From IMG/VR virus record IMGVR_UViG_3300028025_004808, positions 1-64,000 of that record: a stretch of DNA of 64,000 bases; one strand, written 5' to 3'. Below are positions 5,700-32,800 of the stretch, in pieces. The stretch comes from a virus. The notes beneath the pieces were generated by a model. It ran no database searches. It saw only the letters and a list, made by a program, of their open reading frames with translations, and was not told the origin of the DNA. A program made the translations under genes and the position numbers. The first letter of the stretch is position 1. The number at the start of each line of letters is the position of its first letter.

Positions 5700-7745
5700 G
5701 TGTCTACTTTTTTTTCATTCAGGCTTTCTGACGACTTCCTATCTGGGTATAGGGATAAGAAGCCACCTTTCGGCTACAGGGATGCAGGAGGAAACTCCGT
5801 TGGAGAAATTACTTTCCTTCGTACCTATTCACGTTTAAAGGAAGATGGAACAAAAGAAACATGGGTTGATGTTTGTGAGCGTGTAATCAACGGCATGTAT
5901 TCACTTCAGAAAGACCATTGCAAGACCAACCGCCTTCCTTGGAACGACGCAAAGGCACAGGCCAGTGCAAAAGAAGCGTTTGACCGTTTGTTCCAATTAA
6001 AGTGGACTCCACCAGGTCGTGGTTTGTGGGTTATGGGCACACCTCTTGTGAATGTTCACAAAAACTCTGCTGCATTGCAAAACTGTGCATTTGTTTCTAC
6101 TTCAGAAATGACAAAGAACAATCCAGCAAAGCCATTTGCCTTTCTTATGGAAGCATCAATGCTTGGCGTTGGCGTTGGATTTGACAACAAGGGTGCAGAG
6201 AAAGACTTCACTATCTATGAGCCAACAAAGCCCGTAGTTACTGAGGTTATTGACGACAGCCGTGAAGGCTGGGTTGCTTCACTTATTTCTATTATTAACT
6301 CATACTTAAAAGCAGACCAGAGTCCTGTTGAGTTTGACTACTCACTCATCCGCCCTGCTGGAACACCAATCAAAACATTCGGTGGTACTGCTGCTGGACA
6401 TGCTTCTCTTGAGCGTTTGCACAAACACATTCGCTCAATGTTTAAGGGTCGTAACGGCGAAAAGTTGACACGTGTAGACATTGCTGATATTGGAAACATG
6501 ATTGGTGTTTGCGTTGTTTCTGGAAATGTTCGTCGTTCTGCTGAACTTCTCATCGGCAGTCTTGAAGATGAGCAATTCTTAAACCTGAAGAACTCTGCAG
6601 TATTCCCTGAGCGTAACTCTTATGACCCAGATGCTCCAGGTTGGGGATGGATGTCAAATAACTCTGTAGAAACATCTGTTGGCAGAGACCTTTCTGGAAT
6701 TGTTGAAGGAATTGCATTAAATGGAGAGCCAGGAGTTATTTGGCTTGACATGTCTCGCAAGTACGGTCGTTTAATTGACCCACCAAACAACAAAGACTGG
6801 CGTGTTGCTGGATACAACCCATGCGCAGAGCAGTCTCTTGAGTCATACGAATGTTGCACTCTTGTTGAGACTTACTTGAACCGTCATGATTCTTTGGATG
6901 ATTATAAGCGCACTCTCAAGTTTGCTTATCTGTATGCAAAGACAGTAACGCTTCTCCCAACTCACTGGGAAGAAACAAACGCAATCATGCAGCGCAACCG
7001 CCGTATTGGAACATCAATGTCTGGTGTTGCCAACTTTGCTGACAATGTAGGAATGCCAGTTCTTCGTGAATGGATGGATACTGGTTATAATACAGTTAAG
7101 GCGTACGATGTTTCGTACTCTGAGTGGCTTGGAATTCGTGAGTCAATCAAGATGACTACCGTTAAGCCTTCTGGAACTGTTTCAATTCTTGCTGGCGAGT
7201 CTCCTGGAGTTCACTGGACACCAGGCGGAAAGTTCTTTAACCGTGCAATCCGCTTTGCTAACGATGACCCAATGCTTCCATTGTTTACGATGGCAAATTA
7301 TCGTGTTGAGCCAGCATCGGAATCTCCAGAAACAACTTCTGTTGTATTCTTCCCAATTGAATCAGATGCTGTTCGTTCTGAAAACGATGTAACTATCTTT
7401 GAAAAGATGTCACTAGCAGCCGCTGCTCAACGTTACTGGTCCGATAACTCGGTATCAGTTACAATTTCTTTTGATGCAGAAAAAGAAAAGGAACATGTGG
7501 GCACTGTACTCCATATGTATGACGGTCAACTTAAGACTGTTTCGTTCCTACCTCAAGGTAACTTCACTTATCCGCAGATGCCGTATACGCAGATAACGGA
7601 AGAAGAGTACACAGAAGCCACAAAGGACCTTTTCCCCATTGATTTCTCTGGTGTTTACGCAGGCATGGCCGCTGATGCAATCGGCGAGTCTTATTGCACA
7701 ACTGACTCCTGCGAAATTAAATTAATTAAGGACAATCAGGGATAA
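5700..7745 (+). CDS. nrdJ: Adenosylcobalamin-dependent (class II) ribonucleotide reductase
   Basis: A 681-residue enzyme of the monomeric RTPR type, which reduces ribonucleoside triphosphates using a radical generated from vitamin B12 coenzyme. C375 in NPCAEQ is the expected thiyl-radical cysteine and E377 the acid/base residue. C129 (QNCAF) and C386 form the expected active-site pair, and C666/C671 in CTTDSC form the C-terminal shuttle pair. PSGTVSILAGESPGVH is the substrate phosphate loop. The start is GTG with GGGG about 6 bases upstream. Arginine is written mostly CGT/CGC here, unlike the AGA-rich neighbours, which suggests a different history or selection for high expression. Confidence 0.95.
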   Translation: MSTFFSFRLSDDFLSGYRDKKPPFGYRDAGGNSVGEITFLRTYSRLKEDGTKETWVDVCERVINGMYSLQKDHCKTNRLPWNDAKAQASAKEAFDRLFQLKWTPPGRGLWVMGTPLVNVHKNSAALQNCAFVSTSEMTKNNPAKPFAFLMEASMLGVGVGFDNKGAEKDFTIYEPTKPVVTEVIDDSREGWVASLISIINSYLKADQSPVEFDYSLIRPAGTPIKTFGGTAAGHASLERLHKHIRSMFKGRNGEKLTRVDIADIGNMIGVCVVSGNVRRSAELLIGSLEDEQFLNLKNSAVFPERNSYDPDAPGWGWMSNNSVETSVGRDLSGIVEGIALNGEPGVIWLDMSRKYGRLIDPPNNKDWRVAGYNPCAEQSLESYECCTLVETYLNRHDSLDDYKRTLKFAYLYAKTVTLLPTHWEETNAIMQRNRRIGTSMSGVANFADNVGMPVLREWMDTGYNTVKAYDVSYSEWLGIRESIKMTTVKPSGTVSILAGESPGVHWTPGGKFFNRAIRFANDDPMLPLFTMANYRVEPASESPETTSVVFFPIESDAVRSENDVTIFEKMSLAAAAQRYWSDNSVSVTISFDAEKEKEHVGTVLHMYDGQLKTVSFLPQGNFTYPQMPYTQITEEEYTEATKDLFPIDFSGVYAGMAADAIGESYCTTDSCEIKLIKDNQG

Positions 7746-8664: not shown

Positions 8665-9456
8665 TTATTTTTTCTTCTTCTTGGAGTTCTCGTACCTATC
8701 AAGCATTCTTCTGCCCTTAGCGGCGAGTCTTGCGGCATCTGATGCGTCCTGAGGCACTGGTTCGCCCCATGCTGCGGCTGATAGGGCAAGACGGGTAGGA
8801 CGACCCTTTTCGTCTTTCATGGGCCCAGAAGGGTTTGTGAAGAATCTGGTAAGGAATGAGCCTTTACGACGCAACTTCTCGGGAGTGTTGGCTGCACCCA
8901 TGACTCCAGGTTTAAGGTTTGCGCCTTCTGTTCTTTTAAAGAACTTGCGACCTGCGGCTGTAAGTCCACCTTTAGGGTCTTTTAGTCGTGCGCTTTTGGT
9001 TTCAACAGGAACACAGTTAGGGACCATTTTCCCTCTTTTCCCCATTTTCGTTCCAACCTGTTTGTAGCCCTGCCAGCATGGGCCACCTTTTTCAAGAAGC
9101 CATTCTTGTCTTGCGTGAAATCTTGTTACCTGTTCGTTGATTGACTTTTTCTGGAGCGGTTCTCCACTATAAGAAACAGCCAGCCATTTAACTTGGGCTA
9201 TTTGTCCTGCTGGTGTTGAATCTTCAAAATGTCTTCTAATCCAAGATTCTCTTAGTTCAAGAATTTCAACTTCTTCAGGCGTTTCTGCAACCCCACCATT
9301 TTCATAAATGGACATCAGAACTTCATTGACATAGTCGCCTTTTGAGCCTCCACCTATAGACCAGAGTTCTGGATAATTGCTCTTTAATTGCTTTGCATAT
9401 TCAGGGTCAAAAACCTGCCACTGACTGTCTGAAAAGGAGATTATTGTCTCATCCAT
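8665..9456 (-). CDS. DUF6321-like basic phage protein
   Basis: A protein of about 263 residues with an acidic N-terminal half and a basic C-terminal half. Residues about 125-145 (CWQGYKQVGTKMGKRGKMVP) and the block beginning DPKGGLTAAGRKFFKRTEGA resemble the DUF6321-type motif found in large DNA phages, which ends with conserved R/K and a K-G-R-P-T-R-L-A segment. The likely start is the ATG at 9454-9456, which overlaps the upstream stop in ATGGATGA and has GGGGA before it; an ATG 7 codons earlier is the alternative. The poly-Lys end suggests nucleic acid binding. Confidence 0.7.
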   Translation of the reverse strand: MDETIISFSDSQWQVFDPEYAKQLKSNYPELWSIGGGSKGDYVNEVLMSIYENGGVAETPEEVEILELRESWIRRHFEDSTPAGQIAQVKWLAVSYSGEPLQKKSINEQVTRFHARQEWLLEKGGPCWQGYKQVGTKMGKRGKMVPNCVPVETKSARLKDPKGGLTAAGRKFFKRTEGANLKPGVMGAANTPEKLRRKGSFLTRFFTNPSGPMKDEKGRPTRLALSAAAWGEPVPQDASDAARLAAKGRRMLDRYENSKKKKK

Positions 9457-9700
9457 TTGATTTCCCCATAAGAGCATTCATTTCGTTCTTCATTCTCATA
9501 CCTTCTGGCGTATTAGGGTCAAGGTCTGGTCTGTCTTCGCCAAAAACTGCTTTGTAGGCTTCACGCAAAGGAGCATCTCCACCAAGTGTTGATGCAAGGA
9601 CTTGAAAGTCTGTTATTTTTTGGGCAAAAGCATCAATGGCTTTTTTTGACTTATTAATTGCTTCTTCTTCAGGACTGCCTGGCTCTGCATCGTGAAGCAT
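9449..9700 (-). CDS. Hypothetical protein (83 aa)
   Basis: A small, mainly helical, charged protein with no known motif. The start overlaps the previous stop by one base (TAATG) and its end overlaps the next gene by 8 bases, so it is embedded in a translationally coupled series of four small genes. Phages often place such genes after the capsid gene, but the function cannot be read from the sequence. Confidence 0.65.
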   Translation of the reverse strand: MLHDAEPGSPEEEAINKSKKAIDAFAQKITDFQVLASTLGGDAPLREAYKAVFGEDRPDLDPNTPEGMRMKNEMNALMGKSNG

Positions 9701-10727: not shown

Positions 10728-12089
10728 TTATTCTCCGGTAGGAGCGTTGTCAAAGTCAACCTTGACGAAAGACTCTGGACGCTTCACAGCAAGTGCCAGG
10801 CGCTGCTCTGCGAGCACCACGATGGCGTTGCGGACGAAGAAGTCAGAGTGCTGTTCCGAGATACGGATTGAAGCCTGCTCACGGTCGTACAACTGAGCGC
10901 CTGTACCGAATGCGCCGACAAGTGCGGTGCCTTCTGGAATTGCAGGAGTCTCAACGACTGGCAAACGCCAAACCTTTGGCTCGCCACCCATTGCGACAGA
11001 AACTGCCACGAGGTACTGGCCATTGCCATCCTTGGTCAACTCAATGTCTTCCCAATCGTTCGGGTGAAGAACGACACCAGATGGTTCGTAGTAAGCGAGG
11101 AAGGACAAGGTTGCGGCACGACGAATCGCATCTGCCTTGGTGTCCGACATTCCTGGTGTTGCTGAGTAAGCACCATCAGACCATGCGTATTCCTGGATAC
11201 CAGCGGTATTGAGAACACCAGTAAGGTTTTCGCCACTGCCGTCGCCATTGAGGATTTGTGCATCTTCTTGAAGACGGAGACCGTACATCAATTCGTTGTC
11301 GATGATTGAACGCAACTGTGGCTCGTCTGCAAGCACGTTACGGTGTGCTGCTTCCCAGTGAGCAATGGTGCGTACTGGAGCCTGGTGGCCTTCAAAAACC
11401 ATCGATGACTGTGGCTTAGCAGCGAAACCGGTGTTTCCGCTGTTGCGCTCAGCAACTGTACCTGCGTTGTTTGTTCCGCCTCCTGTTGCGGTGAAACCGA
11501 GCATACGGAAGTATTCAATAACTGCAGCAGTTGTGGTGCGGCTTGGGAACAAGTCACGAACGCGCTTTACACGCTGTGGCGACATGACCATTGGGTCACG
11601 CTGGATTGAACCGAACTGAGCATCTGCACCACGGCCCAATGTGCCTGATGGAAGTGCTGAGTAAACGTCCTTAACGCCGTATGCGCCATGAGTTGTGAGT
11701 GATGCTCCGAGTTGGAATGGAGAAGGCATGTTTGCGCCATTCTTTCCACCCTGAAGTGTCTTGAACTCTGGTGAGTTGAGGAACAAGTCACCGATTGAGT
11801 AAGAAGAACCGAGGCTCTTTACACTGTAACCTGCGGCAGCAGCGGTTGCGATTGACTCAACCGAAGCCTGTGAACCCCACTGGTCTACTGTGTTCATTGC
11901 CTCAAGACCCTCAATGAGGCCCTTAAGTTCTTTGATATCGGTCATGTTCTTGTCGAACGCACTCTTTTGCTGAGAAGAAACAACAACGGTTCCGTCCTCA
12001 ATCTTGAATGAGTCTGCAATTGCCTTGTTGTCGGCCATCTTGGCGCGAAGTGCTGATTGCAATTCTGAAAGTCTTGCTTGGTCTGACAT
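10728..12089 (-). CDS. Major capsid protein (HK97 fold)
   Basis: A 453-residue protein with the layout of HK97-type capsid proteins. It has an N-terminal helical delta-like region of about 70-100 residues (RAKMADNKAIADSFK, then ELKGLIEGLEAM) that the prohead protease normally removes. Next come a G/A-rich linker, the N-arm and E-loop region, and the P and A domains with PSGVVLHPNDWEDIEL and the end segment VRNAIVVLAEQRLALAVKRP. AGGAGACAAA gives a strong ribosome site. It follows a leader with the ACTTGCACT-N20-TAATAT element and precedes a strong terminator, as expected for the most abundant protein. Codon use leans to CGT/CGC for Arg, unlike the giant genes upstream. Confidence 0.95.
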   Translation of the reverse strand: MSDQARLSELQSALRAKMADNKAIADSFKIEDGTVVVSSQQKSAFDKNMTDIKELKGLIEGLEAMNTVDQWGSQASVESIATAAAAGYSVKSLGSSYSIGDLFLNSPEFKTLQGGKNGANMPSPFQLGASLTTHGAYGVKDVYSALPSGTLGRGADAQFGSIQRDPMVMSPQRVKRVRDLFPSRTTTAAVIEYFRMLGFTATGGGTNNAGTVAERNSGNTGFAAKPQSSMVFEGHQAPVRTIAHWEAAHRNVLADEPQLRSIIDNELMYGLRLQEDAQILNGDGSGENLTGVLNTAGIQEYAWSDGAYSATPGMSDTKADAIRRAATLSFLAYYEPSGVVLHPNDWEDIELTKDGNGQYLVAVSVAMGGEPKVWRLPVVETPAIPEGTALVGAFGTGAQLYDREQASIRISEQHSDFFVRNAIVVLAEQRLALAVKRPESFVKVDFDNAPTGE

Positions 12090-12208: not shown

Positions 12209-12457
12209 TTATTCCGAAGGTTTCTGCAATTTGGAAATTGACGGACCAAAAAGTTTTTCAATCTTTTTATCCAACTTGTTGTCAACTAAACCGTATAAAT
12301 CTTCAATTAAATCATTAATAGTTGGCTTAATTTCTTCTAAATCTTCGGCTTTTTCATCTTCGCCCGTAGCCCTTAAAACAGCAATAAAGCGTTCAAGTTC
12401 GTCAATCTTTATTTTTTTTATTTCGGAAGGCGTTGCTTTTGAATTTAAAGATGTCAT
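12209..12457 (-). CDS. Small charged helical protein (82 aa)
   Basis: An acidic, helical protein (KIKIDELERFIAVLRATGED, then DLIEDLYGLVDNKLDKK) of unknown function. It overlaps the stop of the 1283-residue protein by 4 bases and is the last gene before the capsid promoter region. Its size, charge and position just before the capsid gene would suit a scaffold-assisting role, but there is no direct evidence. Confidence 0.6.
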   Translation of the reverse strand: MTSLNSKATPSEIKKIKIDELERFIAVLRATGEDEKAEDLEEIKPTINDLIEDLYGLVDNKLDKKIEKLFGPSISKLQKPSE

Positions 12458-15400
12458 CTGTTCCTCAAAACTTTAATTTCTATTCCAGGATAAGCAACTC
12501 TAATAATATTTAACCACTGAGACCTACTCATTGACGGGAATAAGTCTTCAAGCAAATCAATGGTTGACTCGTCTATCTCTGCAATGTTGTTATTAGGTGC
12601 TGCTCTTTCTGCTGGAGTTGATGTAATCATTCTTCCAACTTCTGCTATGAGTTCATGAACACCATATCTGGCATACTCAGAATATTTTTGTGCAATTTTA
12701 TCAAGGATTCCACCTCTATCCCTGAGTATTTCTGAAATCATATCATCTCCGAACAAGAGTTCGTCTATTAGGGGCTCTAGATTTTTTATAAACTCTTCTC
12801 TATTTTCTTGCAATTGTTTAGTTATCTCATCTATTGCTGTTTTTCTTACTTTTGCATCGCTCAAGCCAGGATTATTTTTTTTGACTAGTTGCTGTACGGC
12901 GCTCAAAACTTTTTCTTCTAAATATTTAGGCATATCTTTGTCTTCAAAAATTTTTCTGACAACTGACTCTGGGTCTTGCACTAAGTCTGTCAAGCCTTGA
13001 AGGTAAGTATCAACTCTTGTTTCAAATGTTTTTTGGTCAGAGCCCATCAATAGCGCATCTAAATAGTGGAACCATTCGTGTCTTAATGTTTGGTTAACGG
13101 TATCAAATTTTTTGTTTTCAAAAGTTGAGCCTATTGCTTCGTGACTACCGCTCTTTACATGGTCTTTACTTACTACAATTAGAGCGCCAAACGGAGTGTG
13201 ATAAGCAGAAACGCCTTCCATTGGATTGCCATCCGTCATGCCATTTCCGTTAATGAACATTGGAAGCCCAAACTCTTCAACAAGTTGTCTAAATGCTTCG
13301 TTATTTGTTAGTTCGTCTTCTAAAACTTTTCTTAAGTTCTTTTGTTCTCGTGGGTCATATTTGGCATTTTTTAATAAAGTTTTTAAATAAACTTCCGAGT
13401 TTTCTCTATCAGAAATTATTGAATACTTCAAAGCAGGTATTGTTTCAAAAAGTCTTAAAATAAAATCATCATCTGTTTCTGATTGCGATTTAATCGGAAC
13501 AAAATTATTTACTACTTTTCTAATACCTTCCGGTGTATCAAGTTGACCTTTTAGTGAAAAATTAGGTATTTCAAGCGGTCTTCTTGGACCTTCTTTTCTA
13601 CCAATACCCTCTGTCGGTAAGTATCTCATTCCACTAGATACTTTTGCAAGTTTTTTTATTACATAATTAAGTGAGTTTTTAGGAGAACCGTCTTGTCTTT
13701 TATTAAGTCTGTCACTTAGTTTTGCGATGAAAGCAACTACGCGGGCTTCTATCTTTTTGTCAATGTCTTCTATTTCGGATATAGATGTTTTAGCGCCTGT
13801 TCCTGGAGTTTTGCCAAACGGGCTAGACGAACCAATGGCACCTGGATTAGCAGGTGGAAGCGCCCCAGGAATTCCAGGAGGCGGAACTGCTGCTCCAGGG
13901 ATTCCAGGTGGAGGAACTGGTCCTGGAGTTACAGGCTGAGGTTGTATTGGTGATGGCTTGTTTTGCGGTTTATTTTGTGGTGGCGTATATCTTCCACCTT
14001 TTTTAGGCTTTGAACTAGAAGCAAGACCCATGAACTCGTCTGATTCTTTTAATGCTTCACGTTCTCCATCGGAAAGAGTATTTCCTTCTCTTGGCTTAGG
14101 AGATAGTTTGTTTCCATTCATAAACTCATCAAGTTTTGTTTGGTCCAAGATGTCAAGTTTTCCATCTTTAAAAGATGCAATCAGTCTTGGTGGCTTGCCT
14201 TGTTCTACATTGTTGTCCCATATATAGAACTCATCTACTTCGCCATTTGATACAGCATCAGAAACCATTCGCGGAATAGAGCGAGCAAAGTGCCCTGTCT
14301 GGTCTGGAATCTTTCTTCCATCTCTTTGTTGGCGTTCTTTGATTCTCTTTGATGCTTCTTCTGCGGGAACATGCACCCAGTGGGCAACAACCCTGTCTCC
14401 GTTTTGTCTAGCCTGAGCAATTATTGCTCGCTGTCTTGTTGAGCCAGCGCCAGTAGCAACAAGGTCCATGCCTTCTTTGCGTGCGTCATCCATTGTTCTT
14501 TGAGCAGACCGAAGCGATTCGTCATGAACCATTGGAGCACCAGCACCATCGTTGTATCCAGTTAATCCAAGTTTAATAAAATCTGGGTCAACATGGGCTG
14601 CTTCGTTTCTGCTGGGGACAATTCCCTGAACAACAAGATGTTCGTCAAGAACTGTTGATTTGCCACCACCAGTAGTTCCGCCTACTAGATAAGTAGTTCT
14701 CTGTTTTTTGTTTTTGTTTGAAGGCTTTACCAATCCTCTGATGATTTCACCCATCTTGCGCCCACCAAGGTTTCTAAATGGGTTTGTCTCAGATGCGTCT
14801 GGGTTCTCAAGACCTTCAATTTTGATTGGCTCTGCTTTTATCGGTTTTGAAACAGAAGCAAACCCGCGCGCACTTCTAGAAGAGGCACCAAAGTTTTCTA
14901 TTGGAGTACCAGTAAGTTTTTCGCGTTGCTTTGGCGTTGTTGCGTCAAACCATTTTCCTACAGACGAAACAGAAAGAGTAGAGATGGGTTTTTCAACATC
15001 TTGAGGCTTTGGAACACCGGGAACATTTGGTCTTTCAAAAGCGCTTCCGTCTTGAAGCAAGCCATCTCCGTCACCGTCTTCTGCTCTAGGGTCAAATCTT
15101 TGAGTGATTGTTCTTGCAGAAAATCTTGATACGCCAGATATTTTTGGACCAATCGCTTTACCGATTATTTCCTCTACAAGACTCTTTTTTCTTTTCTTTA
15201 ATTCATTTGAAAGAATAGTTCTAACTACTTTTTGAGTTCTTTTTTCTTGATTGTTTCTGCCAAGTGCAGTCATACCAGTCAGGTTGTTGTAATCAGTAAG
15301 ATTTGTACATGGCATCCATACAGTTTTTCCTGATTTAGAAACTCTTCTACTGATTCCGATACATCCAAGTTGTTGTGCTCTTCTTCTTGCAGATTCAATA

Positions 15401-16305
15401 TCGATAAATACGTCAGTGTCGTTGTCTCTAGGCGAATATGCAGCCTGAGCGCTCTTTGCAGACATTCTGCTGGGTGAGGTGCGACCTTGTGGTAAATATT
15501 GTGCAGCCTGTTCTTTGGACAGGTTCATTGCATAAGCATCAGCATCCTTTGGATTAGAAAACTTTCCTAGATGCTCTCCAGTCCTTTTATAGTGCTTCCA
15601 CGCTTCTCTGTCGCTAACAATCTTTCCAGTACCATCTTGGTTTCTGATAACAGTAGGAATCAAAACTGTTAATTTGCCTTCAGTCATGCTGATTGAACGA
15701 ACAGTACTGATTGAACCGTCTTTGTTTTTAACTACAGGTCGATTGTTTAGGTTTATGTTGCCTTTTACTACTTGCCCTTTAGGCGGTTTTTTATTAGTGT
15801 TTTTTGCTGGCACTCGTGTGTCATCAGGTCCGCCAGGGGTGGATGCAAAATAACCATCTCCGTCTCCATCTCTTTGCTTGCCTGAAGAACTTCCCGCCTG
15901 CTCTGAGCCTATAGTTTGTCCTAAACTCTTTGTAGAAACTCCTGAAGATGTTGAGGCACCATAAGTAATCGGCGGTATTGAACCACCATTTACCAGGTTT
16001 ACTGAATTCCTTGGGGACACAAGACCGCCATTGGGAAGTGAATCAACTCCAAAAACTCTTCTTTCGCGAAGTTTTTCCCAGCCGTCTCTTCTTTTTCTTC
16101 CCTTTTTCTTTCTTCTACCAGAGCGCTCTTTCATGTCGTCCAGCGTCATGCGAGATTTAACAGACTCAGGTTGAGTAATTGTTAAGTATTGCTTAATTGA
16201 CGAACACGGAATCCATTCGCCATGAGAGTTTTGGTGCGCGCCAAAGCATCCAATTTGCGCCGCTTGCTTAATTGCAAGCAGTTTGGATACAAACCCGTTT
16301 TCCAC
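12454..16305 (-). CDS. Giant modular protein: zeta-toxin-like kinase plus HExxH metalloprotease-like domain
   Basis: 1283 residues. Near the N-terminus C20/C34 and again C315/C333 form paired-Cys modules (GCFGAH..EWIPC and GCIGIS..VWMPC). A short DGDGDGYFAS lies near 147-154, and an EF-hand-like DGDGDGLLQDG starts at 410. FAS or LAS linkers occur at F153, F482 and L761. Residues about 540-720 resemble zeta toxin kinases: Walker A GGTTGGGKST with K549, then HVDPDFIK and HDES. Zeta toxins phosphorylate UDP-N-acetylglucosamine. A Pro-rich stretch with repeated PPPGIPGA follows (about 785-830). The C-terminal part has H1076-E-W-F-H1080 and a downstream E near 1218-1222, typical of gluzincin metalloproteases. 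It lies between head genes, so a virion-internal cargo protein is inferred. Confidence 0.8.
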   Translation of the reverse strand: MENGFVSKLLAIKQAAQIGCFGAHQNSHGEWIPCSSIKQYLTITQPESVKSRMTLDDMKERSGRRKKKGRKRRDGWEKLRERRVFGVDSLPNGGLVSPRNSVNLVNGGSIPPITYGASTSSGVSTKSLGQTIGSEQAGSSSGKQRDGDGDGYFASTPGGPDDTRVPAKNTNKKPPKGQVVKGNINLNNRPVVKNKDGSISTVRSISMTEGKLTVLIPTVIRNQDGTGKIVSDREAWKHYKRTGEHLGKFSNPKDADAYAMNLSKEQAAQYLPQGRTSPSRMSAKSAQAAYSPRDNDTDVFIDIESARRRAQQLGCIGISRRVSKSGKTVWMPCTNLTDYNNLTGMTALGRNNQEKRTQKVVRTILSNELKKRKKSLVEEIIGKAIGPKISGVSRFSARTITQRFDPRAEDGDGDGLLQDGSAFERPNVPGVPKPQDVEKPISTLSVSSVGKWFDATTPKQREKLTGTPIENFGASSRSARGFASVSKPIKAEPIKIEGLENPDASETNPFRNLGGRKMGEIIRGLVKPSNKNKKQRTTYLVGGTTGGGKSTVLDEHLVVQGIVPSRNEAAHVDPDFIKLGLTGYNDGAGAPMVHDESLRSAQRTMDDARKEGMDLVATGAGSTRQRAIIAQARQNGDRVVAHWVHVPAEEASKRIKERQQRDGRKIPDQTGHFARSIPRMVSDAVSNGEVDEFYIWDNNVEQGKPPRLIASFKDGKLDILDQTKLDEFMNGNKLSPKPREGNTLSDGEREALKESDEFMGLASSSKPKKGGRYTPPQNKPQNKPSPIQPQPVTPGPVPPPGIPGAAVPPPGIPGALPPANPGAIGSSSPFGKTPGTGAKTSISEIEDIDKKIEARVVAFIAKLSDRLNKRQDGSPKNSLNYVIKKLAKVSSGMRYLPTEGIGRKEGPRRPLEIPNFSLKGQLDTPEGIRKVVNNFVPIKSQSETDDDFILRLFETIPALKYSIISDRENSEVYLKTLLKNAKYDPREQKNLRKVLEDELTNNEAFRQLVEEFGLPMFINGNGMTDGNPMEGVSAYHTPFGALIVVSKDHVKSGSHEAIGSTFENKKFDTVNQTLRHEWFHYLDALLMGSDQKTFETRVDTYLQGLTDLVQDPESVVRKIFEDKDMPKYLEEKVLSAVQQLVKKNNPGLSDAKVRKTAIDEITKQLQENREEFIKNLEPLIDELLFGDDMISEILRDRGGILDKIAQKYSEYARYGVHELIAEVGRMITSTPAERAAPNNNIAEIDESTIDLLEDLFPSMSRSQWLNIIRVAYPGIEIKVLRNR

Positions 16306-16310
16306 CGTAG

Positions 16311-16646
16311 TTAGAAAATTCCAGTTGGAAGGTCGCCGTCATCCATAGGGTCAGCATTTTCACGACCCTCTAATTTAAGAACTGCTTTTTGGGCTTCTTC
16401 TGGATTGTCGGCATATCTCTTCTGATACAAACGAGCCTCATCAAGGTCATCTGTCCACTTAGCGTCTACCGTAGAAAACATGCGGTCGTAAGCATTTTCT
16501 TCTTTTGCATTTGCAAGAGCGAGTATTCTCTCTGTCTCTTTTTGAACATCTTTTTTAAATTCTTCTCTCTTTTTAAGAGAAGTAGTAAATGGTGGCCAAT
16601 CAAGAATAAGTGAATACTCTTTGTGTTTTAGCATGAACTCTTCCAC
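16311..16646 (-). CDS. Hypothetical helical protein (111 aa)
   Basis: A charged, helical protein (FKKDVQKETERILALANAKE) ending in an acidic tail DPMDDGDLPTG. No motif is recognised. The start is taken as GTG at 16646, with GAAGGCGAG upstream; an ATG four codons later, preceded by GGAAGAG, is equally possible. It is sandwiched between two giant modular genes with only 2-5 base spacers, so it belongs to the same transcript and may be a partner or chaperone of one of them. Confidence 0.62.
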   Translation of the reverse strand: MEEFMLKHKEYSLILDWPPFTTSLKKREEFKKDVQKETERILALANAKEENAYDRMFSTVDAKWTDDLDEARLYQKRYADNPEEAQKAVLKLEGRENADPMDDGDLPTGIF

Positions 16647-16648
16647 TA

Positions 16649-19600
16649 TTAACTCGCCTTCTGGGTTGCGTAGATTTCTTTCATTCTATCCGCAGTCATT
16701 GCTTCGTCAACAATGGCCAGTGCGCCTCTGTTGAACCATACTATTGGTGAGTTGCCTTCATGGTCTACGCCGTCATATCCATAAATCATGGCTGCATAGT
16801 GTTCGTCTTTTGACGTAATTGACTCCATGTACTTGATTGCAGCCCATAATTCCTGCCTCATGGCTGGAGGTGCTGTTTCCATGTATTTAAAGAAGTTTGA
16901 AGCCAACTGTCCTGCTTCCGTAGACCAAAGTGGGTCTCCATCGGCAAGCGCTTTAGAAATTGCAGCCTTTAGTTCTTTGACCAAATCCTGGGGGTCAATG
17001 TCTTCTGCACTCTGAGTGCCTCCACCGATTCCACGAAGTGCTTTGTGTATTTCACCCCACATTTTTCCGTGCTCTGCTCGGAGTTTTCCTGCTTCTGAAA
17101 TTGTCAAAACTCTTGAATCTGGGGAAATAAGAGCAAGCGTTCCCTGGTTGTAGGCAAGATATCCATCCCATCCAGTTCCTGGTCTAGACCAGTATTCTCC
17201 AGGACCATAAACAGCACCACCTTCACCAGTGATGAATCTTTCTGTGTCTTCAATGTAATCTTTAATCCATCCGATTGCACCTGACTCATTGTCTGCTGGT
17301 GGTGGAGGGGTTCCGTGACCACGCTGAATTACCTTCCAGCCTTGACCAGCAAGGTATTCGGCGTCCGCTTCAGTAATCGGTGTAGCAAGAGCGTTGTACC
17401 CCTGAACAGTCCATACGTTTCCTAGTTCCTTACCAGCGTTCTGACCCTTTTGTTCTTGAAGTAGTTCAAGTGCTCTTGGGTCGTCTTTCCCTCTGAAAAG
17501 GACTGCAAGTTTTTGAATGCCCTTTTCGTCAACTGTTGGAACTCCGCCTTTTCCTGTTCCGAAAACTGTTGGGTTAGCGGTTCTGGTCTGGTCAATACTC
17601 TTATTGACATCAGCCTCGCTTGGTCCGCCCTTAAGCCTACGCTTGATTCTTCTTCCAGTTCTTGCAAGTGCTCGTCTGGCTCTTTCTCTTGCACCAGGTG
17701 CGCCTGGTCTTTCTTCACCAAGACGACGAACGGTACCTCTTTTTTGTCTGCGAAGTTCTCTCTTGCGACGAGCCGCTTCAGCATTATCAAAAATTCTGTC
17801 AGAGAAATCCTTAAGTTTGCTGCTCTTTTTTGCGCCAATCAATGAACGCTTTTTTCCTGCCTGTGCTTCTTCAAAACCTGTGAAGTAAGAAGATTCAGCA
17901 TTAAGGTCAAGTTGCGGTTTTGTTTTAGGGTCATCAAAAGGACTTACGAATGGAGATTCTTCGCCCTTCTTTGGCTTTGATGAAATACCAGCAGAATGTG
18001 TTTTTCCAATTGCTGCTCTTCTTGATGTAGTGGTGAGATGTTCAACAAGACTCCAGTCGTCTCTTTCGGACATCGCATCAAAAACCATCAAATCTTCTGC
18101 TGCGGAAGTAAACTCTAATTTTTCTTTTTGAAGTTTCTTTAATTGATTTTGCGCTGATTTAATTTGTTTGTCATCATCACCTGGCGTAAGGGAAGATATT
18201 TGTTTTTCAAGAGTACTAATTTCACCATCAATTTGTCTTGTTATGCTGTCAACGAGTCTTCTGTATGAAGTAAGTGCTTCACCAGAAATTCTTGAATCTT
18301 TTGTTAATGGCTTCCCGTCAGCATCAGTCTTTGTAACGCCTCTGCCTTTTTGACCGACAAATGTTCCCCACCATGTTCCAGTACCAGTGTCGTCAGGAAT
18401 TGCTTTAACCCATTCCTGAATTTGCTCATAACGCTTCTTGAGGTTTTCTTTAACAATTTCTTTTTGCTTGTCATCAAGGGTCTCGTGAAACTGACCGTCA
18501 GTGTCTTTCATCTTGTCAACACCAGGGCGGCGTCTAACAACCGCCTTGCCAGAGCGTGATGCAAAGCCTTCAACCTGACGCTGAGTTCTGGCTTCAGAAA
18601 CTCTTTTTGAAACACCACGAGCCTGTGCTGCTGGTTTTGCAGCATCAGCAGCCTGTTCAGGCTTTACTCTTCTTTGACCACCAGGTTTGCGTGCTGCTGG
18701 CTTATTGTCTCCTGAGCCGCCTGCACGACGGGCAGCCCTACTTCCAGAAGAGCCTGAGTTTGCTCTATTGAGGTCTCTCCAGGCTCTAGTTGCTGCGCCT
18801 GTATCAACAGAGCCACCAGATGCACGGTCGTTTACGCCAGGTATTGCTGGTCGCTGGAATGGTGTTCCTTCTTGAACAATGCCGTCGCCGTCGCCGTCCC
18901 AAGCCTTAGGGTCAAAGGACGCTGCTGCTGTACGACCTGCTCTTCTGGCAATTCTTGAACCTGAACCAATGCTTTCGCCTAGTCCTTTTTCGGAGATTCC
19001 GTTTTCAAGGCTCTTTGTTTCCAGTTCAGAAGCACTACCCATTTTTGTGCGCTCAATACCATTTGAGATAATGGCTGATTTAAGACGCATTCCAATTCTT
19101 CTTTCAGAAGAACGACCAACCGCCGTATCAACACGCTGTCTTAAAGATTTGTTTTGCTCGCTATCAGGTGCTGCGTTATACATCCACTTATCGAAGTTGA
19201 AAGCGTAATTGTTTGCTCTTGCTTCGTGAAGGAAACTTCCTTCTTTAATACTGCTGCGAACATGGAGGCATTTGTAGGAAACTGCTGCAGCATATTGATA
19301 AGCGGTAAAGTGACCAATAGGTGTGTCAACAACTGCTGGAACTCTTGATTCGGACTTAACTCTTACTGAACCAGCATGTCTGTATGCTTTTGATTTTACA
19401 AAATTAGATGCAGAACTCTCTCCGTAACCAAATGTTGTAATAAGAGATTTGATATCTGTGTCTGAAACGGTTTTAAATGGTCCTTGAATTATTCCTGCTG
19501 GAATTTGTGACTCTTCAAGAGTCTTTGACTCAACAGAGTTTGCCCACTGTGCCCACTCTTTGCCTTGTCCGTCATAGCCGTAGTACTTGACGCCATATTC

Positions 19601-19666
19601 GTCTTGTACGGCAATAGCAAACTTCTCATTGCGTAGTGCGTCAAATAGAGTAGAAATTTGCTTCAT
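16649..19666 (-). CDS. Giant modular protein with ADP-ribosyltransferase-like segment
   Basis: 1005 residues. A unique N-terminal domain of about 200 residues is followed by the shared block KGLGESIG, then FDPKAWDGDGDGIVQEGTPF with W256, an EF-hand-like loop almost identical to that in the protease polyprotein. A basic low-complexity stretch (about 280-360) leads to EGFASRSG (F368) and later GISSKPKKG. Residues about 400-560 are coiled coil. The C-terminal part has VIQRGHGTPP (R782) and AVYGPGEYWSRPG (E824), which resemble the first Arg and the G-x-G-x-Y strand of R-S-E ADP-ribosyltransferases; a clear E-x-E is not obvious, so activity is uncertain. It overlaps the upstream gene by 4 bases. 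Virion cargo is inferred. Confidence 0.75.
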   Translation of the reverse strand: MKQISTLFDALRNEKFAIAVQDEYGVKYYGYDGQGKEWAQWANSVESKTLEESQIPAGIIQGPFKTVSDTDIKSLITTFGYGESSASNFVKSKAYRHAGSVRVKSESRVPAVVDTPIGHFTAYQYAAAVSYKCLHVRSSIKEGSFLHEARANNYAFNFDKWMYNAAPDSEQNKSLRQRVDTAVGRSSERRIGMRLKSAIISNGIERTKMGSASELETKSLENGISEKGLGESIGSGSRIARRAGRTAAASFDPKAWDGDGDGIVQEGTPFQRPAIPGVNDRASGGSVDTGAATRAWRDLNRANSGSSGSRAARRAGGSGDNKPAARKPGGQRRVKPEQAADAAKPAAQARGVSKRVSEARTQRQVEGFASRSGKAVVRRRPGVDKMKDTDGQFHETLDDKQKEIVKENLKKRYEQIQEWVKAIPDDTGTGTWWGTFVGQKGRGVTKTDADGKPLTKDSRISGEALTSYRRLVDSITRQIDGEISTLEKQISSLTPGDDDKQIKSAQNQLKKLQKEKLEFTSAAEDLMVFDAMSERDDWSLVEHLTTTSRRAAIGKTHSAGISSKPKKGEESPFVSPFDDPKTKPQLDLNAESSYFTGFEEAQAGKKRSLIGAKKSSKLKDFSDRIFDNAEAARRKRELRRQKRGTVRRLGEERPGAPGARERARRALARTGRRIKRRLKGGPSEADVNKSIDQTRTANPTVFGTGKGGVPTVDEKGIQKLAVLFRGKDDPRALELLQEQKGQNAGKELGNVWTVQGYNALATPITEADAEYLAGQGWKVIQRGHGTPPPPADNESGAIGWIKDYIEDTERFITGEGGAVYGPGEYWSRPGTGWDGYLAYNQGTLALISPDSRVLTISEAGKLRAEHGKMWGEIHKALRGIGGGTQSAEDIDPQDLVKELKAAISKALADGDPLWSTEAGQLASNFFKYMETAPPAMRQELWAAIKYMESITSKDEHYAAMIYGYDGVDHEGNSPIVWFNRGALAIVDEAMTADRMKEIYATQKAS

Positions 19667-21666
19667 TTTTTTTCTCCGAAGATTTCAAGGAGTATGTTCT
19701 TACTGTTCTCATAATTGTTAATTCGTGTTTCAATAATTGTTGCAACAATGTCAAGATGGGCTTTTTCAGCGCCAGACAAGCGGCCGTCACTGTAAAGACG
19801 TGATTTTAATTGTGTGAAATTAAACTTCCTTGCTCTCAATAATAAAGCGTCAATTTCGCGCCTGAATGCAAGTTGTTGCTGTTTCTGCAGTTTTTGGAAA
19901 TATTGACCGTATTTGTCATTTCCAGGAGAACTAAGGAAATCCTTGATTGTCATCTTTGTTCTCTCTGTAATTTTAATCTTGTCAAGGTCTGTAAGAGCAG
20001 AAGTAAAGTTGTTTGTCAGGACAGGGCGAACATTTTCGCCGTTGGATACTGGGACAATTGAGCCTGGGTCTCGCATTCTCTGGTCTGTAATCCAGTCAGA
20101 AACAAGTATTTTGGCAACGTCTTCAGGCTCATAGTCGGAAAAAGTCTTTCTTCTATCAACCTGATACCCACGAATAATGTTGCCTGGGTCTTCTATTAGG
20201 TAGTCCCTCTTTGAGCCTGTACCAGAGAAGAATACGTCTGGTGACTCAAGGCCAATAAATTGCTGGAAATCAGAAGCGACTCTTTGACCTATGTGCTCAT
20301 TGTCTGCAGAAGATTTGTGCATGATGTATCTAGCGCCATTTGGACCAGTTACAACACTCCGCTTGGCATCAAGTTTCTGCAACTTGAATACATTGCTCTT
20401 TGAGATTGCTTGACCAAGAATTGATGGGTCAATCTCATTAAGACTCTTTCCAGCAGAAATTGCGCTTACTGCTTGGTCAAGGTCTGTTATCTGCTTGCCA
20501 ACTTGTGACTCGCTGTCGTTTTCGCGGAGAGATTCGGCAAGTGGCTTTGCCTTCTTGCCCTTTCCAAACACCTCGTCTGCCCATCTTGGTAGTGAGCGAC
20601 CGTTCTTAGAAACAACTTCATTTGGATTTTTAATATTGACGAAGTTTTCTGAATAACCGATTCCATCGCCAGTTTGATTAACGACTTCTTTAAGACGAGC
20701 AGTTGGGTCATTTTGAACATCTATTTTTGCGGCAGAGTTAACTGTTCTACCTAGTTTTCTTCTTTCACCAACAGTGAGTGGTCTCTTTTTTTCAAGATTA
20801 ATACTTGAGCCACCAGGAAGAACGTATGTCAATTTAGTTACTCCAGTATTGGACAAGAGACCTAATTCCTGTCCACCAATCTCGTCAACGCTTTGAACGG
20901 AAAGAAGATATGTAGCACCTTCCATGTCTCTGTTGTCTGGAATTGCGCGCAAAACTTGCGCTGAAACTACTGGCTCAAGAACAAATCCGTCTTTTCTGAC
21001 CATTCTTACGGCTGGTTTATCTGCTCTACCAATTTCAGATACAAGATTTTTTGCTGCCGCAGTCGCTGCTGGTCTGTTTTCGTTGCCAACCCTAGGAATC
21101 TGAGGTCTTCTAGAGTCAACAATGCTCTCGGGCATTGGCTCACCAGTGATGGCTCTTGAAGATGTCCTGCCAGGAGTAGCAACCCCTCTTGCGACTCTTC
21201 TAATTGCGCCGATTGCAAGACCTAAAGCCGAAGGAATATCAAAAAGTTTGGCTCCACATGTAGAGAACCTATTATCAGTAAATCTTCCGCCGTACTGGTA
21301 ACCCTCAGGGCATCTTGATGTGCTGTCTCCACCTGGGCGTCTGCCAGGAATATTTGGCTTTCCTGGAGTAATACCTCTCCATCCAGCGGAGCGTATAGGG
21401 CTTCTTACGGCACCCATGTTTCCAGGAATTGCTACAGAAGCGCCTGCTCCCAATGCTTGACCTATTGTGCTGTGCGTTCCAATAAGACCAACTTTTATTC
21501 CATACTGTCTAGTTACCCCAGAGCGCTTTGACAGCGCTTTAAAATCAACGATGTTTTGGTCACCATTAAGACGTTTTTTGATAATAGAAACCACTTGTCG
21601 CGCACTTTTTGTGCCGACAAAAGAAATTCTTACCTTTACGTATTTTTCTTCTGGGATACTAAGCAT
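19663..21666 (-). CDS. Modular head-region protein with degenerate kinase-like C-terminal part
   Basis: 667 residues. Residues C119-C137 form the paired-Cys module RCPEGYQYGGRFT..C, with the same 17-residue gap as in the 1875-residue protein. Upstream is STIGQALGAG, a weak form of the K-G-L-G-x-S-I-G segment. The region after about residue 430 (ARYIMHKSSADNEHIGQRVA, LESPDVFFSG, then VSDWITDQRMRDPGSI and VLTNNFTSALTD) follows the order of a HipA-like kinase fold, with N in place of the D-x-G aspartate, so it may be an inactive relative of the kinase-like domain in the protease polyprotein. It is coupled to genes on both sides by 1-4 base overlaps. Function unknown. Confidence 0.65.
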   Translation of the reverse strand: MLSIPEEKYVKVRISFVGTKSARQVVSIIKKRLNGDQNIVDFKALSKRSGVTRQYGIKVGLIGTHSTIGQALGAGASVAIPGNMGAVRSPIRSAGWRGITPGKPNIPGRRPGGDSTSRCPEGYQYGGRFTDNRFSTCGAKLFDIPSALGLAIGAIRRVARGVATPGRTSSRAITGEPMPESIVDSRRPQIPRVGNENRPAATAAAKNLVSEIGRADKPAVRMVRKDGFVLEPVVSAQVLRAIPDNRDMEGATYLLSVQSVDEIGGQELGLLSNTGVTKLTYVLPGGSSINLEKKRPLTVGERRKLGRTVNSAAKIDVQNDPTARLKEVVNQTGDGIGYSENFVNIKNPNEVVSKNGRSLPRWADEVFGKGKKAKPLAESLRENDSESQVGKQITDLDQAVSAISAGKSLNEIDPSILGQAISKSNVFKLQKLDAKRSVVTGPNGARYIMHKSSADNEHIGQRVASDFQQFIGLESPDVFFSGTGSKRDYLIEDPGNIIRGYQVDRRKTFSDYEPEDVAKILVSDWITDQRMRDPGSIVPVSNGENVRPVLTNNFTSALTDLDKIKITERTKMTIKDFLSSPGNDKYGQYFQKLQKQQQLAFRREIDALLLRARKFNFTQLKSRLYSDGRLSGAEKAHLDIVATIIETRINNYENSKNILLEIFGEKK

Positions 21667-22286: not shown

Positions 22287-22723
22287 TTTGTCTCCATTTG
22301 GATTGGAAGGGTTTTCATTGTTTTTGCCCTAACTATTGATGTGTTTTGAGTTTCTAAAAGCGATTTAAATTCAGAAATTCTGTAGTTGATGGATTTAGCC
22401 TTCATCTTTGATTTTAGAACATCAGAGACAATTTGAACACCAGATAACATATGCTCTGATATTTTCTGAGTTTTATTTACAAAAACCCTGTTCCATCTAT
22501 CTTCATCAGGTCCTTCTGGGTCTTCATTGTCCCACAGAAATTTATGAAAATTAGTTGATTTAATTGGCTTTAAAGTATTTGACTTAGATGCCGTTTTCCA
22601 AAAGTTTACAACCTTTGAAGTTTCTCCATCAGACACAACGCCATCTGATTCTTTGTTTTTTGCGTCAATAATATAATAAAACTTTTTTTCTGAGTCTATT
22701 GTCCCAACAAATACGGCTTTCAT
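22283..22723 (-). CDS. Hypothetical protein (146 aa)
   Basis: A basic protein with a beta-rich start (KAVFVGTIDSEKKFYYIID) and a helical C-terminal half (ISEHMLSGVQIVSDVLKSKM). No family is recognised. It overlaps the 1875-residue gene upstream and the 206-residue gene downstream by 4 bases each, so it is translated as part of the same coupled series. Confidence 0.62.
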   Translation of the reverse strand: MKAVFVGTIDSEKKFYYIIDAKNKESDGVVSDGETSKVVNFWKTASKSNTLKPIKSTNFHKFLWDNEDPEGPDEDRWNRVFVNKTQKISEHMLSGVQIVSDVLKSKMKAKSINYRISEFKSLLETQNTSIVRAKTMKTLPIQMETK

Positions 22724-29868: not shown

Positions 29869-32800
29869 TTATGCTTCGGGAACTATATTTATGGTTCTAC
29901 TTTGTCCGCGTGAATTTGTTGCTGTTCGTGTTGTGTCTGTTATTGCGTTTGTCTTTTTATCAATAAATGTTGACTTGGCTGCACCAGCAACCATCTCAAT
30001 AAGTTTTGAATACCAAGCGATTCTTTTTTCTCCGCCGTCAGCAAGTTGAGTGTCAAGAGCAAACATAAGACCATCAAGAATCTGGTCTGCCTCTTCAGCG
30101 GTAAAGTAAATACTTCCCACATTTGTTCTTCTGCTTCCAGTTTTTCCTGCTTCGTCTCTGGAAATTAATTCAGACAGTTTTCTGAGACCAGCAATTGCTC
30201 TCTTATCCCCGTCTTTGGTTGCTCTTTTTATTTCTTTGTCTAGAGATGATTGAACATCTTTAAAGAATGTCGCCTCATCTGTAATCATTGTCTTTCCGCC
30301 AGCAGAGGTTGAAGCAAAACCTCTTGTCCCAGGCTTGCCAGTACCGTTAAGTTTTTTAAGGTCTTTTTGGATGTCTTGTGCAAGGTTTATGTTAAATTTT
30401 TTGCTTGTTCCACCAGTTGCCGAAGCAAAATTAATTTGACTGCTTGACGGTTTTTTGCCTCCGATAATCCACTCATCTTCAGAATAGGCAGTTCTTGTTC
30501 CCAAAAGGGTTTTAAGAATCTTTCTTGCTGCTGCCAAGTTGGCTCTTTCGTCTGGAGTTAACTGTTCGTCTTCAAATGCGCTGACATAGTCATCTAAAAC
30601 TTCAATTGTTCTATCAAGGCTCCTGATGGTGAAGTCATATCCATTTTCTTGCAAAGATGTCGTAACTTCATCCCACAAGTCTCTGTGCTCGTTTATTTCA
30701 GAATCGCTTGAATCAATTCTTGATGACGAGGCGTCAATTGCCTCAAGAAACTTATCAAGTCTTGATTCTCTTTCTGTTTTTGCATCCTGAGCGTTTGAAG
30801 ACTTTTTAATCTTGGGGGCTTTTGGTTCTGAAGATGTTTCGCGTTTTGGTTTAGCCGCTGCACCTTCTGTTGGTTCTCTAGGAACGCCCATTCTTTCAAT
30901 TGTTCTTTGTTCTTCTCTTCTTGCAGCGAGTTCTGCTCTTCTCGCAGCAGGAGACATTTCTGCAAGTTCTTCTTTGTCCATTTGGTCGCCAAGGTCGGCA
31001 AGAAGTTTTCTATAAGCAACGCGAGACATTTCGCTTCCGCTATCTGGGTTGCCTTGAGTCAAAGCCCATTGAAATTTTTCGTCTGTTGTAAGTTCATCCC
31101 AATTATCTGGCTTTATTTCATCAAATGTTTTGCCAGCAAATTGAGTTTCTGCACCAACTTCAGTACCTGCTCTATTTTTTTCTCCTTCTCGTCTTGCTCT
31201 TCCTGGAGCAAGATTTCCACCTGGAACCATTTCGCCAACTCCACGGGCTCTTCTTGCTCCGCCTCCACGCTCGTCATCACCAGGACCATCAATATTTGAT
31301 GCAAATCCAACCCTTGAAGCGCTTACTGAACGAGCGGGTTTCTTTGTTAGTGAAGCAAATGGTTTTGCTTTAGCACCAGAAGCATCGCTTCGTGATGTAT
31401 CAGACGGGTTGTCAACCAACTTTCCTGTTGACCAGTGGTCGACAATCCAGTCTCTTCTAGCAATAAGAATTTGAGCAAGCCTGTCTCCATCTTCTTTGTC
31501 GCTAATTTGCTGGGAAACCAATTTCTTGATGTCGTCATCTGTTACTTGAGAAAGTTCTTTTACTTGTCTCGCAACCTCTGAAGGTTCAATGTCTTTGTAG
31601 TAAGCCTTGGAGACAGCGGTCTGAACAGGCTGTCCAGAACGTGTTACGCCATTTATTAAGTTTTCAACTTCGTCAACTTTAGGACCAAACGGTGGGTTTG
31701 TCTTTAAACCACTGTATCTCTGCGCTCTAAATATCAAGCCACCACCAGAGTCGGCCATTACTGCCTCTCCGTTAGGACCCTGGACAATGTTTGACATATT
31801 GCCAGTGCCGTCCCAGTTTGCAAGCCATGCATTAGCAATAAGGCTTCTTTGAACTGATGCTTTAAACTTTGAGTCTTTAGACATCTGAGAATGACTTACT
31901 TCTCTTATTCTGTCATCCCATTCACTGACTCTTTGAAGTTTTCCGTTATGAACACCACGGTTGTAGTCAATGGTCGGAACACCAAGAAGTTGATACAGTT
32001 TGCTTGTCAAAATTTCTGTTTCTCCGCGGAATTCTTCGCCAGACCTAGAATGCTTTACATAGTAAACCTTTCCAGTTTTTGGGTCCATATATCTTCCTGC
32101 TTCGTTAAGACCTCCTGCACCACCGACTTTTTTCCAGCCAGTAGTTGTGTGGACGTAGGGAAGTGGTCCTGCTCCAAAAGTTAATGCGTCTCTAAATCCT
32201 GCAGTTGGCTGACTTGTGTTTGATGCAAAGCGGCGTGGTCCTCCACTTCCTGGTCCCATGTTTGAATACATGGTGCGAAGCGCTTTCCATCTAGAAGCCG
32301 ACATTTGTCCGCTGTTGCTATCATGCTCTCGGATAATTTCTTGAGCAACACGAAGACCTTTTTGCTGACGAGCCCACGCAACGTATTGTCTTTGCTGTAG
32401 TTCGGTCATATCTGTTGGTGCGCCATTATTGGCACGTTTCCCAGAAGAGGCAAACCCCTTTGATTTCTTGGGATTGGCTATTTCGTTGATGTCGTATTTT
32501 CCATCAAGAGATTCTGCTGCTTGATGCAATACACCGTAAATATCAGAAGAAACAACACCGTTGTCAAAAGAATCTTCAATTGCAGCAGCAATATCATCAA
32601 ACTGCTGTGGTGTTACTTCGAATTTTCCACCTTTTGACTCTTCAAGAATCTTCTTCATTGCGAGCAAAGGCTGACGGTTTTTTGTATTGTCAAGAAGCAT
32701 TCCAACTTCTTCATTAAGAACACCAATTGTGTCATCATCAAGGGTGATTGAGAGGTTCTTTTGAGGAGTAACTGTTCCGTCTTTGGTAATTTTCTTTCTT

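What the first reader, a model, noticed from the sequence alone, without database searches (positions are those of the whole stretch)
12454..16305. Zeta-toxin-like kinase and HExxH protease in one virion-region protein
GGTTGGGKST, HVDPDFIK and HDES in this order is the zeta-toxin family layout; HEWFH with a downstream Glu is the gluzincin layout. Zeta toxins block cell wall precursor synthesis. A phage-encoded, possibly injected zeta-like kinase without a neighbouring epsilon antitoxin is unusual.
Basis: partly seen in the sequence, partly recalled or inferred. Interest (0 to 1): 0.72.

Follow-up and report, generated by a model that had tools for sequence, protein, structure and literature searches.

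The report
Phage head protein carrying enzyme payloads
The gene encodes a phage head-region protein to whose conserved front part a zeta-toxin-like kinase and a zinc protease have been added; about 50 related uncultured phages carry this gene with or without the added enzymes, and where enzymes are present a short acidic tag marks the joint.

Summary
In detail: one 1283-aa ORF on the minus strand (12454-16305) holds a real zeta-superfamily kinase (Pfam Zeta_toxin 1.7e-11; model pLDDT 92.9, best fold 1gvn zeta, Z 16.7; K549 in the P-loop) and a zincin with invariant RHExxH...SxYA...ExxAE. Zeta-like kinases and zincins in phage 'polyvalent proteins' are already described (Iyer 2017). The Glu essential in zeta toxin is Thr here and not conserved in the clade, so a cell-wall target is unproven. 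More interesting is the architecture. The front of the protein (two DUF3721 repeats) also exists alone as a 197-272 aa gene directly before the major capsid gene. In 26 kinase-bearing versions the enzymes follow that complete core, and 25 carry an acidic tag (DxDxDGxx[QF][DE]G) 22-51 residues after it (one at 130). The same tag stands at core/payload joints of three other unrelated head-region genes, and its sequence matches within a genome rather than within a gene. A small acidic gene upstream accompanies the kinase in 23 of 25 loci and none of 24 kinase-free ones: a candidate partner or inhibitor, though phylogeny gives only two independent changes. Verdict: new variant of a known kind.

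The parts
12454..16305 (-). ORF of the finding, 1283 aa, GTG start: core + inserted module + tag + kinase + zincin
16198..16293 (-). DUF3721 repeat 1 (residues 5-36, GCFGAHQ...WIPC), first half of the conserved core
   Evidence: Pfam PF12518 1.8e-11, two stretches; alignment A7
15451..15924 (-). About 158-residue insertion (about 128-285) between the two repeats, absent from the close relatives; holds a segment shared with podovirus ejection proteins (residues 172-287) and, before it, a second DGDGDG string (146-151)
15307..15366 (-). DUF3721-like repeat 2 (residues 314-333, GCIGISRR...WMPC), end of the conserved core
15028..15096 (-). Junction tag FDPRAEDGDGDGLLQDGSAFERP (residues 404-426) between core and payload
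14101..14790 (-). Zeta-superfamily P-loop kinase domain (residues 506-735); K549, D575, R658, R664
12586..13608 (-). Zincin metallopeptidase domain (modelled residues 900-1240); RHEWFH 1075-1080, SEYARYGVHELIAE 1209-1222
16311..16646 (-). g111: small acidic gene directly upstream, co-occurring with the kinase payload; candidate inhibitor, chaperone or loader
16649..19666 (-). g1005: second head-region gene with core + tag (tag DNA 18867-18898) + extension
29869..35676 (-). Prohead protease (Peptidase_S78) core fused to a 1935-aa chain; tag DNA 34229-34260
8665..9477 (-). DUF6321 gene, here in short untagged form (270 aa); tagged and extended in some relatives
10728..12089 (-). Major capsid protein (HK97 fold), follows the finding; syntenic anchor
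19663..21666 (-). g667, conserved syntenic head-region gene with little length variation

Best explanation
The ORF is a polyvalent-type head protein of an uncultured contractile-tailed phage, probably of Actinobacteria. Shown from sequence: it is a conserved pre-capsid core protein (two DUF3721 repeats) followed by an acidic junction tag, a zeta-superfamily kinase with an intact ATP site, and a zincin of the kind found beside zeta kinases in giant relatives. Inferred: the core is a minor head component that carries the C-terminal payload into the capsid; on infection the payload leaves with the DNA; the zincin cuts the chain or a host protein; the kinase phosphorylates a host small molecule (UDP-sugar, NAD or nucleotide) early in infection. 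The tag, shared in matching form by other head genes of the same genome, is most simply a common address for packaging or processing. The small acidic gene upstream may keep the kinase silent, or load it, in the producing cell.
For: Kinase: Pfam 1.7e-11; PDB profile hit 1gvn zeta toxin 1.7e-10, next 1e-4; model pLDDT 92.9, VIA Z 16.7 to 1gvn over 200 residues and 16.5 to PezT; purifying selection. Zincin: invariant RHExxH and SxYA...ExxAE in 10 sequences; VIA Z 8.4 to a zincin catalytic domain, other zincins below. Polyvalent character: leader-bearing homologue L059 has zincin, zeta kinase, pentapeptide repeats, ArdC-N and MPTase-PolyVal in one chain. Core/payload: minimal core 197-272 aa in 24 full-length loci (plus one 153-aa end fragment), kinase in 25 of 26 longer loci plus the window, fixed synteny before the capsid gene. 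Tag: 0 of 25 minimal, 25 of 27 expanded, 22-51 residues after the core end and one at 130; same rule in g1005, prohead protease and DUF6321 genes; no match of the reversed control pattern in 42 records; within-genome tag identity 0.70 versus 0.47 for the same gene across genomes, 0 of 2000 permutations. Delivery: inserted segment shared with podovirus proteins annotated as DNA transfer or internal virion proteins.
Against: No proteomics: packaging and ejection are inferred from gene position and a shared segment. Packaging a chain of up to 3293 aa in some relatives, and passing it through a contractile tail, would need unfolding or cleavage, which is not shown. The zincin fold match is borderline (Foldseek none under 0.001; VIA Z 8.4). 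Payload presence changed only twice on the capsid tree, so statistics over loci overstate independence.
Confidence: 0.6

Rival explanations
1. True zeta toxin action: the injected kinase phosphorylates UDP-N-acetylglucosamine and weakens the host wall to help DNA entry or later lysis, as proposed for zeta-like domains in polyvalent proteins.
For: Closest solved folds are zeta and PezT; this role is proposed in PMC5512222; some clade members keep EGTGYR in the substrate loop.
Against: The Glu essential in zeta (PMC6356619) is Thr618 here and Glu in only 7 of 27 homologues; the loop reads ATGAGSTR. AvrRxo1 (an NAD kinase, from my own knowledge) and polynucleotide kinases score nearly as high in fold.
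Confidence: 0.22
2. The payload acts in the producing cell during late infection (assembly, host shut-off, competitor exclusion), not after injection; the core merely ties it to the head operon.
For: The gene is in the late head module; no direct evidence of packaging; a dedicated small gene upstream would fit control in the producing cell.
Against: Payload always follows an intact core, and the same tag marks several head-region genes; the inserted segment is shared with ejected podovirus proteins.
Confidence: 0.22
3. Structural role only: P-loop and zincin domains serve head assembly or maturation (for example self-processing) with no host target.
For: The prohead protease gene of the same operon is a known maturation enzyme.
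Against: Many phages of the same lineage have the core without kinase or zincin and an otherwise syntenic head module, so these enzymes are not needed for assembly.
Confidence: 0.08
4. The small upstream gene g111 is the kinase's antitoxin-like inhibitor.
For: Directly upstream (the place of epsilon and PezA), acidic in all (pI 4.2-5.6), present in 23 of 25 informative kinase-bearing loci and 0 of 24 kinase-free ones.
Against: Only two independent changes on the tree (sign test p 0.5); L085 and L099 have the kinase without it; no similarity to epsilon by Pfam. It could be a chaperone or loader.
Confidence: 0.33

Closest known systems
Polyvalent proteins of phages and conjugative elements (Iyer et al. 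2017, PMC5512222)
   Same: Several unrelated enzyme domains in one chain, zincin as recurrent partner, zeta-like kinase as a listed domain, late-gene context; relatives here carry ArdC-N and MPTase-PolyVal.
   Different: The delivery part is a DUF3721-repeat core that also exists alone as a pre-capsid gene; a junction tag shared by several head-region genes. I found no description of either in that paper's passages that I read.
MuF polymorphic toxins of temperate phages (Jamet et al. 2017, PMC5576092)
   Same: Head-module protein with conserved N-terminus, short forms and toxin-bearing forms.
   Different: No MuF domain found; payload almost constant (zeta kinase); found in a lineage without cultured members.
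Zeta/PezT toxins (1gvn, 2p5t; PF06414)
   Same: Fold, P-loop, catalytic Asp and Arg positions.
   Different: Essential Glu of the substrate loop replaced by Thr; no epsilon homologue; fused into a head protein.
Gordonia myoviruses (Bendigovirus, e.g. phage Gray, MK279853)
   Same: Portal and terminase about 43% identical; enzyme genes (VIP2-like ADP-ribosyltransferase, RNA ligase) between portal and capsid genes.
   Different: Separate genes; no detectable DUF3721 core, g667 or tag in the phage collection (the low-complexity filter may hide the tag).

Membership tests
Zeta toxin (PF06414) superfamily kinase | Profile match above curated cut-off | tested here: met
   44.3 bits against 22.3, E 1.7e-11
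Zeta toxin (PF06414) superfamily kinase | Zeta/PezT fold | tested here: met
   Model pLDDT 92.9; VIA Z 16.7, rmsd 3.1, 200 residues to 1gvn; 16.5 to 2p5t
Zeta toxin (PF06414) superfamily kinase | Walker A Lys and catalytic Asp (K46, D67) | tested here: met
   K549 26/26, D575 26/26
Zeta toxin (PF06414) superfamily kinase | Lid arginines (R158, R171) | tested here: inconclusive
   Likely R658 (27/27) and R664 (18/27, present here); assignment by sequence alignment only
UNAG-phosphorylating zeta toxin | Essential substrate-loop Glu (E116) | tested here: not met
   Thr618 here; Q11/E7/T6/D2/M1 in clade; essentiality from PMC6356619
UNAG-phosphorylating zeta toxin | Cognate epsilon-type antitoxin | tested here: inconclusive
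   No PF08998 in the 70-kb record, which may be incomplete; unrelated g111 upstream
UNAG-phosphorylating zeta toxin | UNAG phosphorylation | not testable with these tools
   needs enzyme assay
Zincin metallopeptidase | HExxH plus distal Glu, conserved in homologues | tested here: met
   Invariant RHExxH and ExxAE in 10 sequences
Zincin metallopeptidase | Zincin fold | tested here: inconclusive
   pLDDT 78; VIA Z 8.4 to a zincin, Foldseek none under 0.001
MPTase-PolyVal (PF18818) | Profile match | tested here: not met
   No Pfam hit; profile comparison with PolyVal zincins of relatives gives 3%
Polyvalent proteins | Two or more unrelated enzyme domains in one phage late-gene product | tested here: met
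   kinase and zincin, between portal/protease and capsid genes
Polyvalent proteins | Packaged and delivered to the host | not testable with these tools
   no virion proteomics for this lineage
MuF polymorphic toxin | N-terminal MuF domain | tested here: not met
   Pfam scan shows DUF3721, no MuF

The most novel reading that the evidence does not exclude
A phage lineage uses one genome-specific acidic tag as a common address that joins or marks exchangeable payloads on at least four unrelated head-region genes (prohead protease, g1005, DUF3721 core, DUF6321), analogous to the junction motifs of polymorphic toxins. The tag directs packaging or release of the payload in the capsid, and a dedicated small protein (g111) holds the kinase payload inactive in the producing cell.
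Probability: 0.33. Interest if true: 0.82.

Novelty: new variant of a known kind. Interest (0 to 1): 0.6.

Why it matters
If true, head proteins of widespread uncultured phages are a modular delivery platform whose payload boundary can be read from sequence. The tag then gives a handle to find virion-packaged effectors of unknown fold, and the core-only/core-plus-payload pairs are natural controls for what the payload does in early infection.

Tried and rejected
Protein-only scan with the zincin found no more relatives, and the zincin alignment only the known three. PDB sequence search with the whole protein gave noise; with the ejection-type module, noise. Neighbour regions that look by eye like a HipA/PI-kinase-like fold (in the S78 chain) or an ADP-ribosyltransferase (end of g1005) got no Pfam support, so they are not claimed. 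The PADLOC scan was empty. The zincin as MPTase-PolyVal member: rejected. g111 as epsilon homologue: no support. A first full-length zincin alignment misplaced the distal helix and was replaced by trimmed rows. An early coordinate slip in building domain alignments was corrected. A strong claim of g111-kinase linkage was lowered after the tree showed only two changes. Cultured-phage searches for the core, g667 and tag: none.
Full report
WHAT WAS CLAIMED AND WHETHER IT IS THERE. The ORF lies exactly at 12454-16305, on the minus strand, 1283 aa from a GTG. Pfam puts Zeta_toxin at residues 528-670 (E 1.7e-11, above cut-off) and two DUF3721 repeats at the N-terminal side; the zincin has no Pfam match. 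The window lies in a 70,178-base virus record. The neighbours on the same strand are the portal (PF04860), an HK97-type prohead protease (PF04586) within a 1935-aa chain, and the major capsid protein directly after the finding. Baseplate genes are on the plus strand, so the phage is contractile-tailed. Its nearest cultured relatives by terminase and portal are Gordonia and Brevibacterium phages at about 43% identity; two kinase relatives lie in Acidimicrobiia/Actinomycetota MAGs. An actinobacterial host is therefore likely, not shown.

THE KINASE. A 27-sequence alignment of the domain gave a model with pLDDT 92.9. K549 sits at the start of the helix that follows the first strand, as in a P-loop. 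The best solved folds are zeta toxin 1gvn (VIA Z 16.7, 200 residues, rmsd 3.1) and PezT 2p5t (16.5); AvrRxo1 (14.8) and a bacterial polynucleotide kinase (14.3) follow. A profile search of PDB sequences ranks zeta toxin first at 1.7e-10, and the next hit is at 1e-4. K549 and D575 are present in all 26 rows that cover them, R658 in 27 of 27, R664 in 18 of 27. But the position of zeta's Glu116 is Thr618 here and Q/E/T/D/M in the clade. In zeta, D67, E116, R158 and R171 are essential for toxicity and ATPase activity, and K46A loses toxicity (PMC6356619). So the phosphotransfer machinery is kept and the substrate site is not; a cell-wall target should not be assumed. The kinase is under strong purifying selection (dN/dS 0.05-0.08, the capsid gene 0.05).

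THE ZINCIN. Close relatives keep HEWFH and HELIAE although the domain has diverged to about 40% identity. The zincin that stands beside the zeta kinase in the giant relatives L059, L065, L085, L098, L099, L117 and L130 aligns with it on RHExxH and SxYAxxxxxExxAE, all invariant. The distance from HExxH to the third ligand is about 138 residues here and about 90 in the giants, longer than in classical gluzincins (from general knowledge). The model is moderate (pLDDT 78); the best folds are zincins, led by an M34-type catalytic domain at Z 8.4, which is borderline. It is not a detectable MPTase-PolyVal.

THE FRONT OF THE PROTEIN IS A GENE OF ITS OWN. The N-terminal part (two GCxGAH...WxPC repeats) was used as a query and matched 103 viral loci, 80 of them kept. 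In a set of 51 loci plus the window the synteny is nearly constant: g1875-g146-g206-g667-g1005-(g111)-CORE-capsid. In 24 full-length loci the core gene is only 197-272 aa (a 25th, L125, is a 153-aa fragment at a contig end). In 26 further loci it is 403-3293 aa, and 25 of those, plus the window, carry a zeta-type kinase; the exception L128 is extended at the N-terminus instead. Near-copies are included in these counts. The expanded proteins contain the whole minimal protein: the profile of minimal forms is covered to position 228-233 of 234 in all but L128. Giant versions add zincins, pentapeptide repeats, ArdC-N and MPTase-PolyVal, which ties the family to polyvalent proteins.

THE JUNCTION TAG. 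Directly after the core comes an acidic motif, here FDPRAEDGDGDGLLQDGSAFERP. It is absent from all 25 minimal cores and present in 25 of 27 expanded ones, starting 22-51 residues after the end of the core, with one at 130. In g1005 it follows the core by 30-88 residues in 20 expanded proteins. In the prohead protease it stands at open-frame position 449-600 of expanded forms, while short protease forms have open frames of 474-508 aa. In L149 the protease is 460 aa and the tag begins the next gene instead. In the DUF6321 gene after the capsid gene it appears in six extended proteins. The close pair L077/L081 (98.9% DNA identity downstream) differs by presence of the tag plus extension. A DNA pattern for the tag matched 29 of 42 records, and its reversed control none; the window's own record has exactly three, in the three genes named. 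Tags of different genes within one genome are 70% identical, tags of the same gene across genomes 47%; 0 of 2000 permutations reach the observed value. Three tag types are visible. This pattern fits a common partner (binding or protease) or exchange within a genome; which of these is not shown. Resemblance to a calcium-binding loop is an impression only.

THE SMALL UPSTREAM GENE. g111 (16311-16646) has the motifs YPPF and DDLEEARLYxKRY and is acidic. It lies directly before the core gene in 23 of 25 informative kinase-bearing loci and in none of 24 kinase-free ones. This is the position of an antitoxin. On a capsid tree both traits change only twice, together, so the link is suggestive; L085 and L099 have the kinase without g111.

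DELIVERY. Residues about 128-285 are an insertion absent from the close relatives L002 and L003. Part of it is 45-53% identical to segments of podovirus proteins annotated as DNA transfer, internal virion or structural proteins. Among all loci held only the window and those phages have it. This, with the gene position, is the only evidence for ejection.

WHAT IS KNOWN. Iyer et al. 2017 list zeta-toxin-like kinases in polyvalent proteins and fused to MuF domains in phages, and propose weakening of the wall to help DNA entry; they name zincins as the hub domain. MuF polymorphic toxins show the same logic of a head protein with optional toxin. The present case is therefore a new variant of a known kind. 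What I did not find described is the DUF3721 core as carrier and the shared, genome-matched junction tag; the literature search covered open papers only.

SHOWN AND INFERRED. Shown: domains, fold of the kinase, conservation, core-only and core-plus-payload forms, tag position and its within-genome similarity. Inferred: packaging, ejection, catalytic activity, substrate, roles of tag and g111.

Noticed in passing
window 29869-35676 (-): Prohead protease fused into a 1935-aa chain; a stretch with K...ANWDGTGNMSNI...DSGGG looks like a HipA/PI-kinase-type active site, but no profile supports it.
   Followed up: partly
window 22720-28347 (-): 1875-aa protein with AAAHEIYHFDQ...LLETMAELAANR, a further zincin-like motif; no Pfam match.
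   Followed up: no
window 16649-19666 (-): C-terminal region of g1005 looks by eye like an ADP-ribosyltransferase; no Pfam support. Relatives' g1005 payloads carry pentapeptide repeats and KTSC domains.
   Followed up: partly
window 15853-15870 (-), residues 146-151: A second DGDGDG string precedes the inserted ejection-type module, with LGQTIG in front, similar to PGQTIG before the tag in the DUF6321 extension of L077: the insert may have arrived with its own tag.
   Followed up: no
L077 12854-14308 and L081 12854-13516: Closely related phages differ by presence of the tag plus extension on the DUF6321 gene: a recent gain or loss.
   Followed up: yes
L021-L023, L025 and relatives: A helix-turn-helix resembling sigma region 4 (LDERDRQVLEMRRNGATLQEIADELGV and similar) lies between tag and kinase.
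   Followed up: no
L085, L099: Kinase-bearing giant versions without g111 and with a 539-551 aa g1005; their tags are of mixed types, suggesting exchange.
   Followed up: partly
window 5700-7745 (+): Class II (B12-dependent) ribonucleotide reductase gene; an ORF of the same length (681 aa) stands in the same place after the head module in relatives L003 and L004.
   Followed up: no
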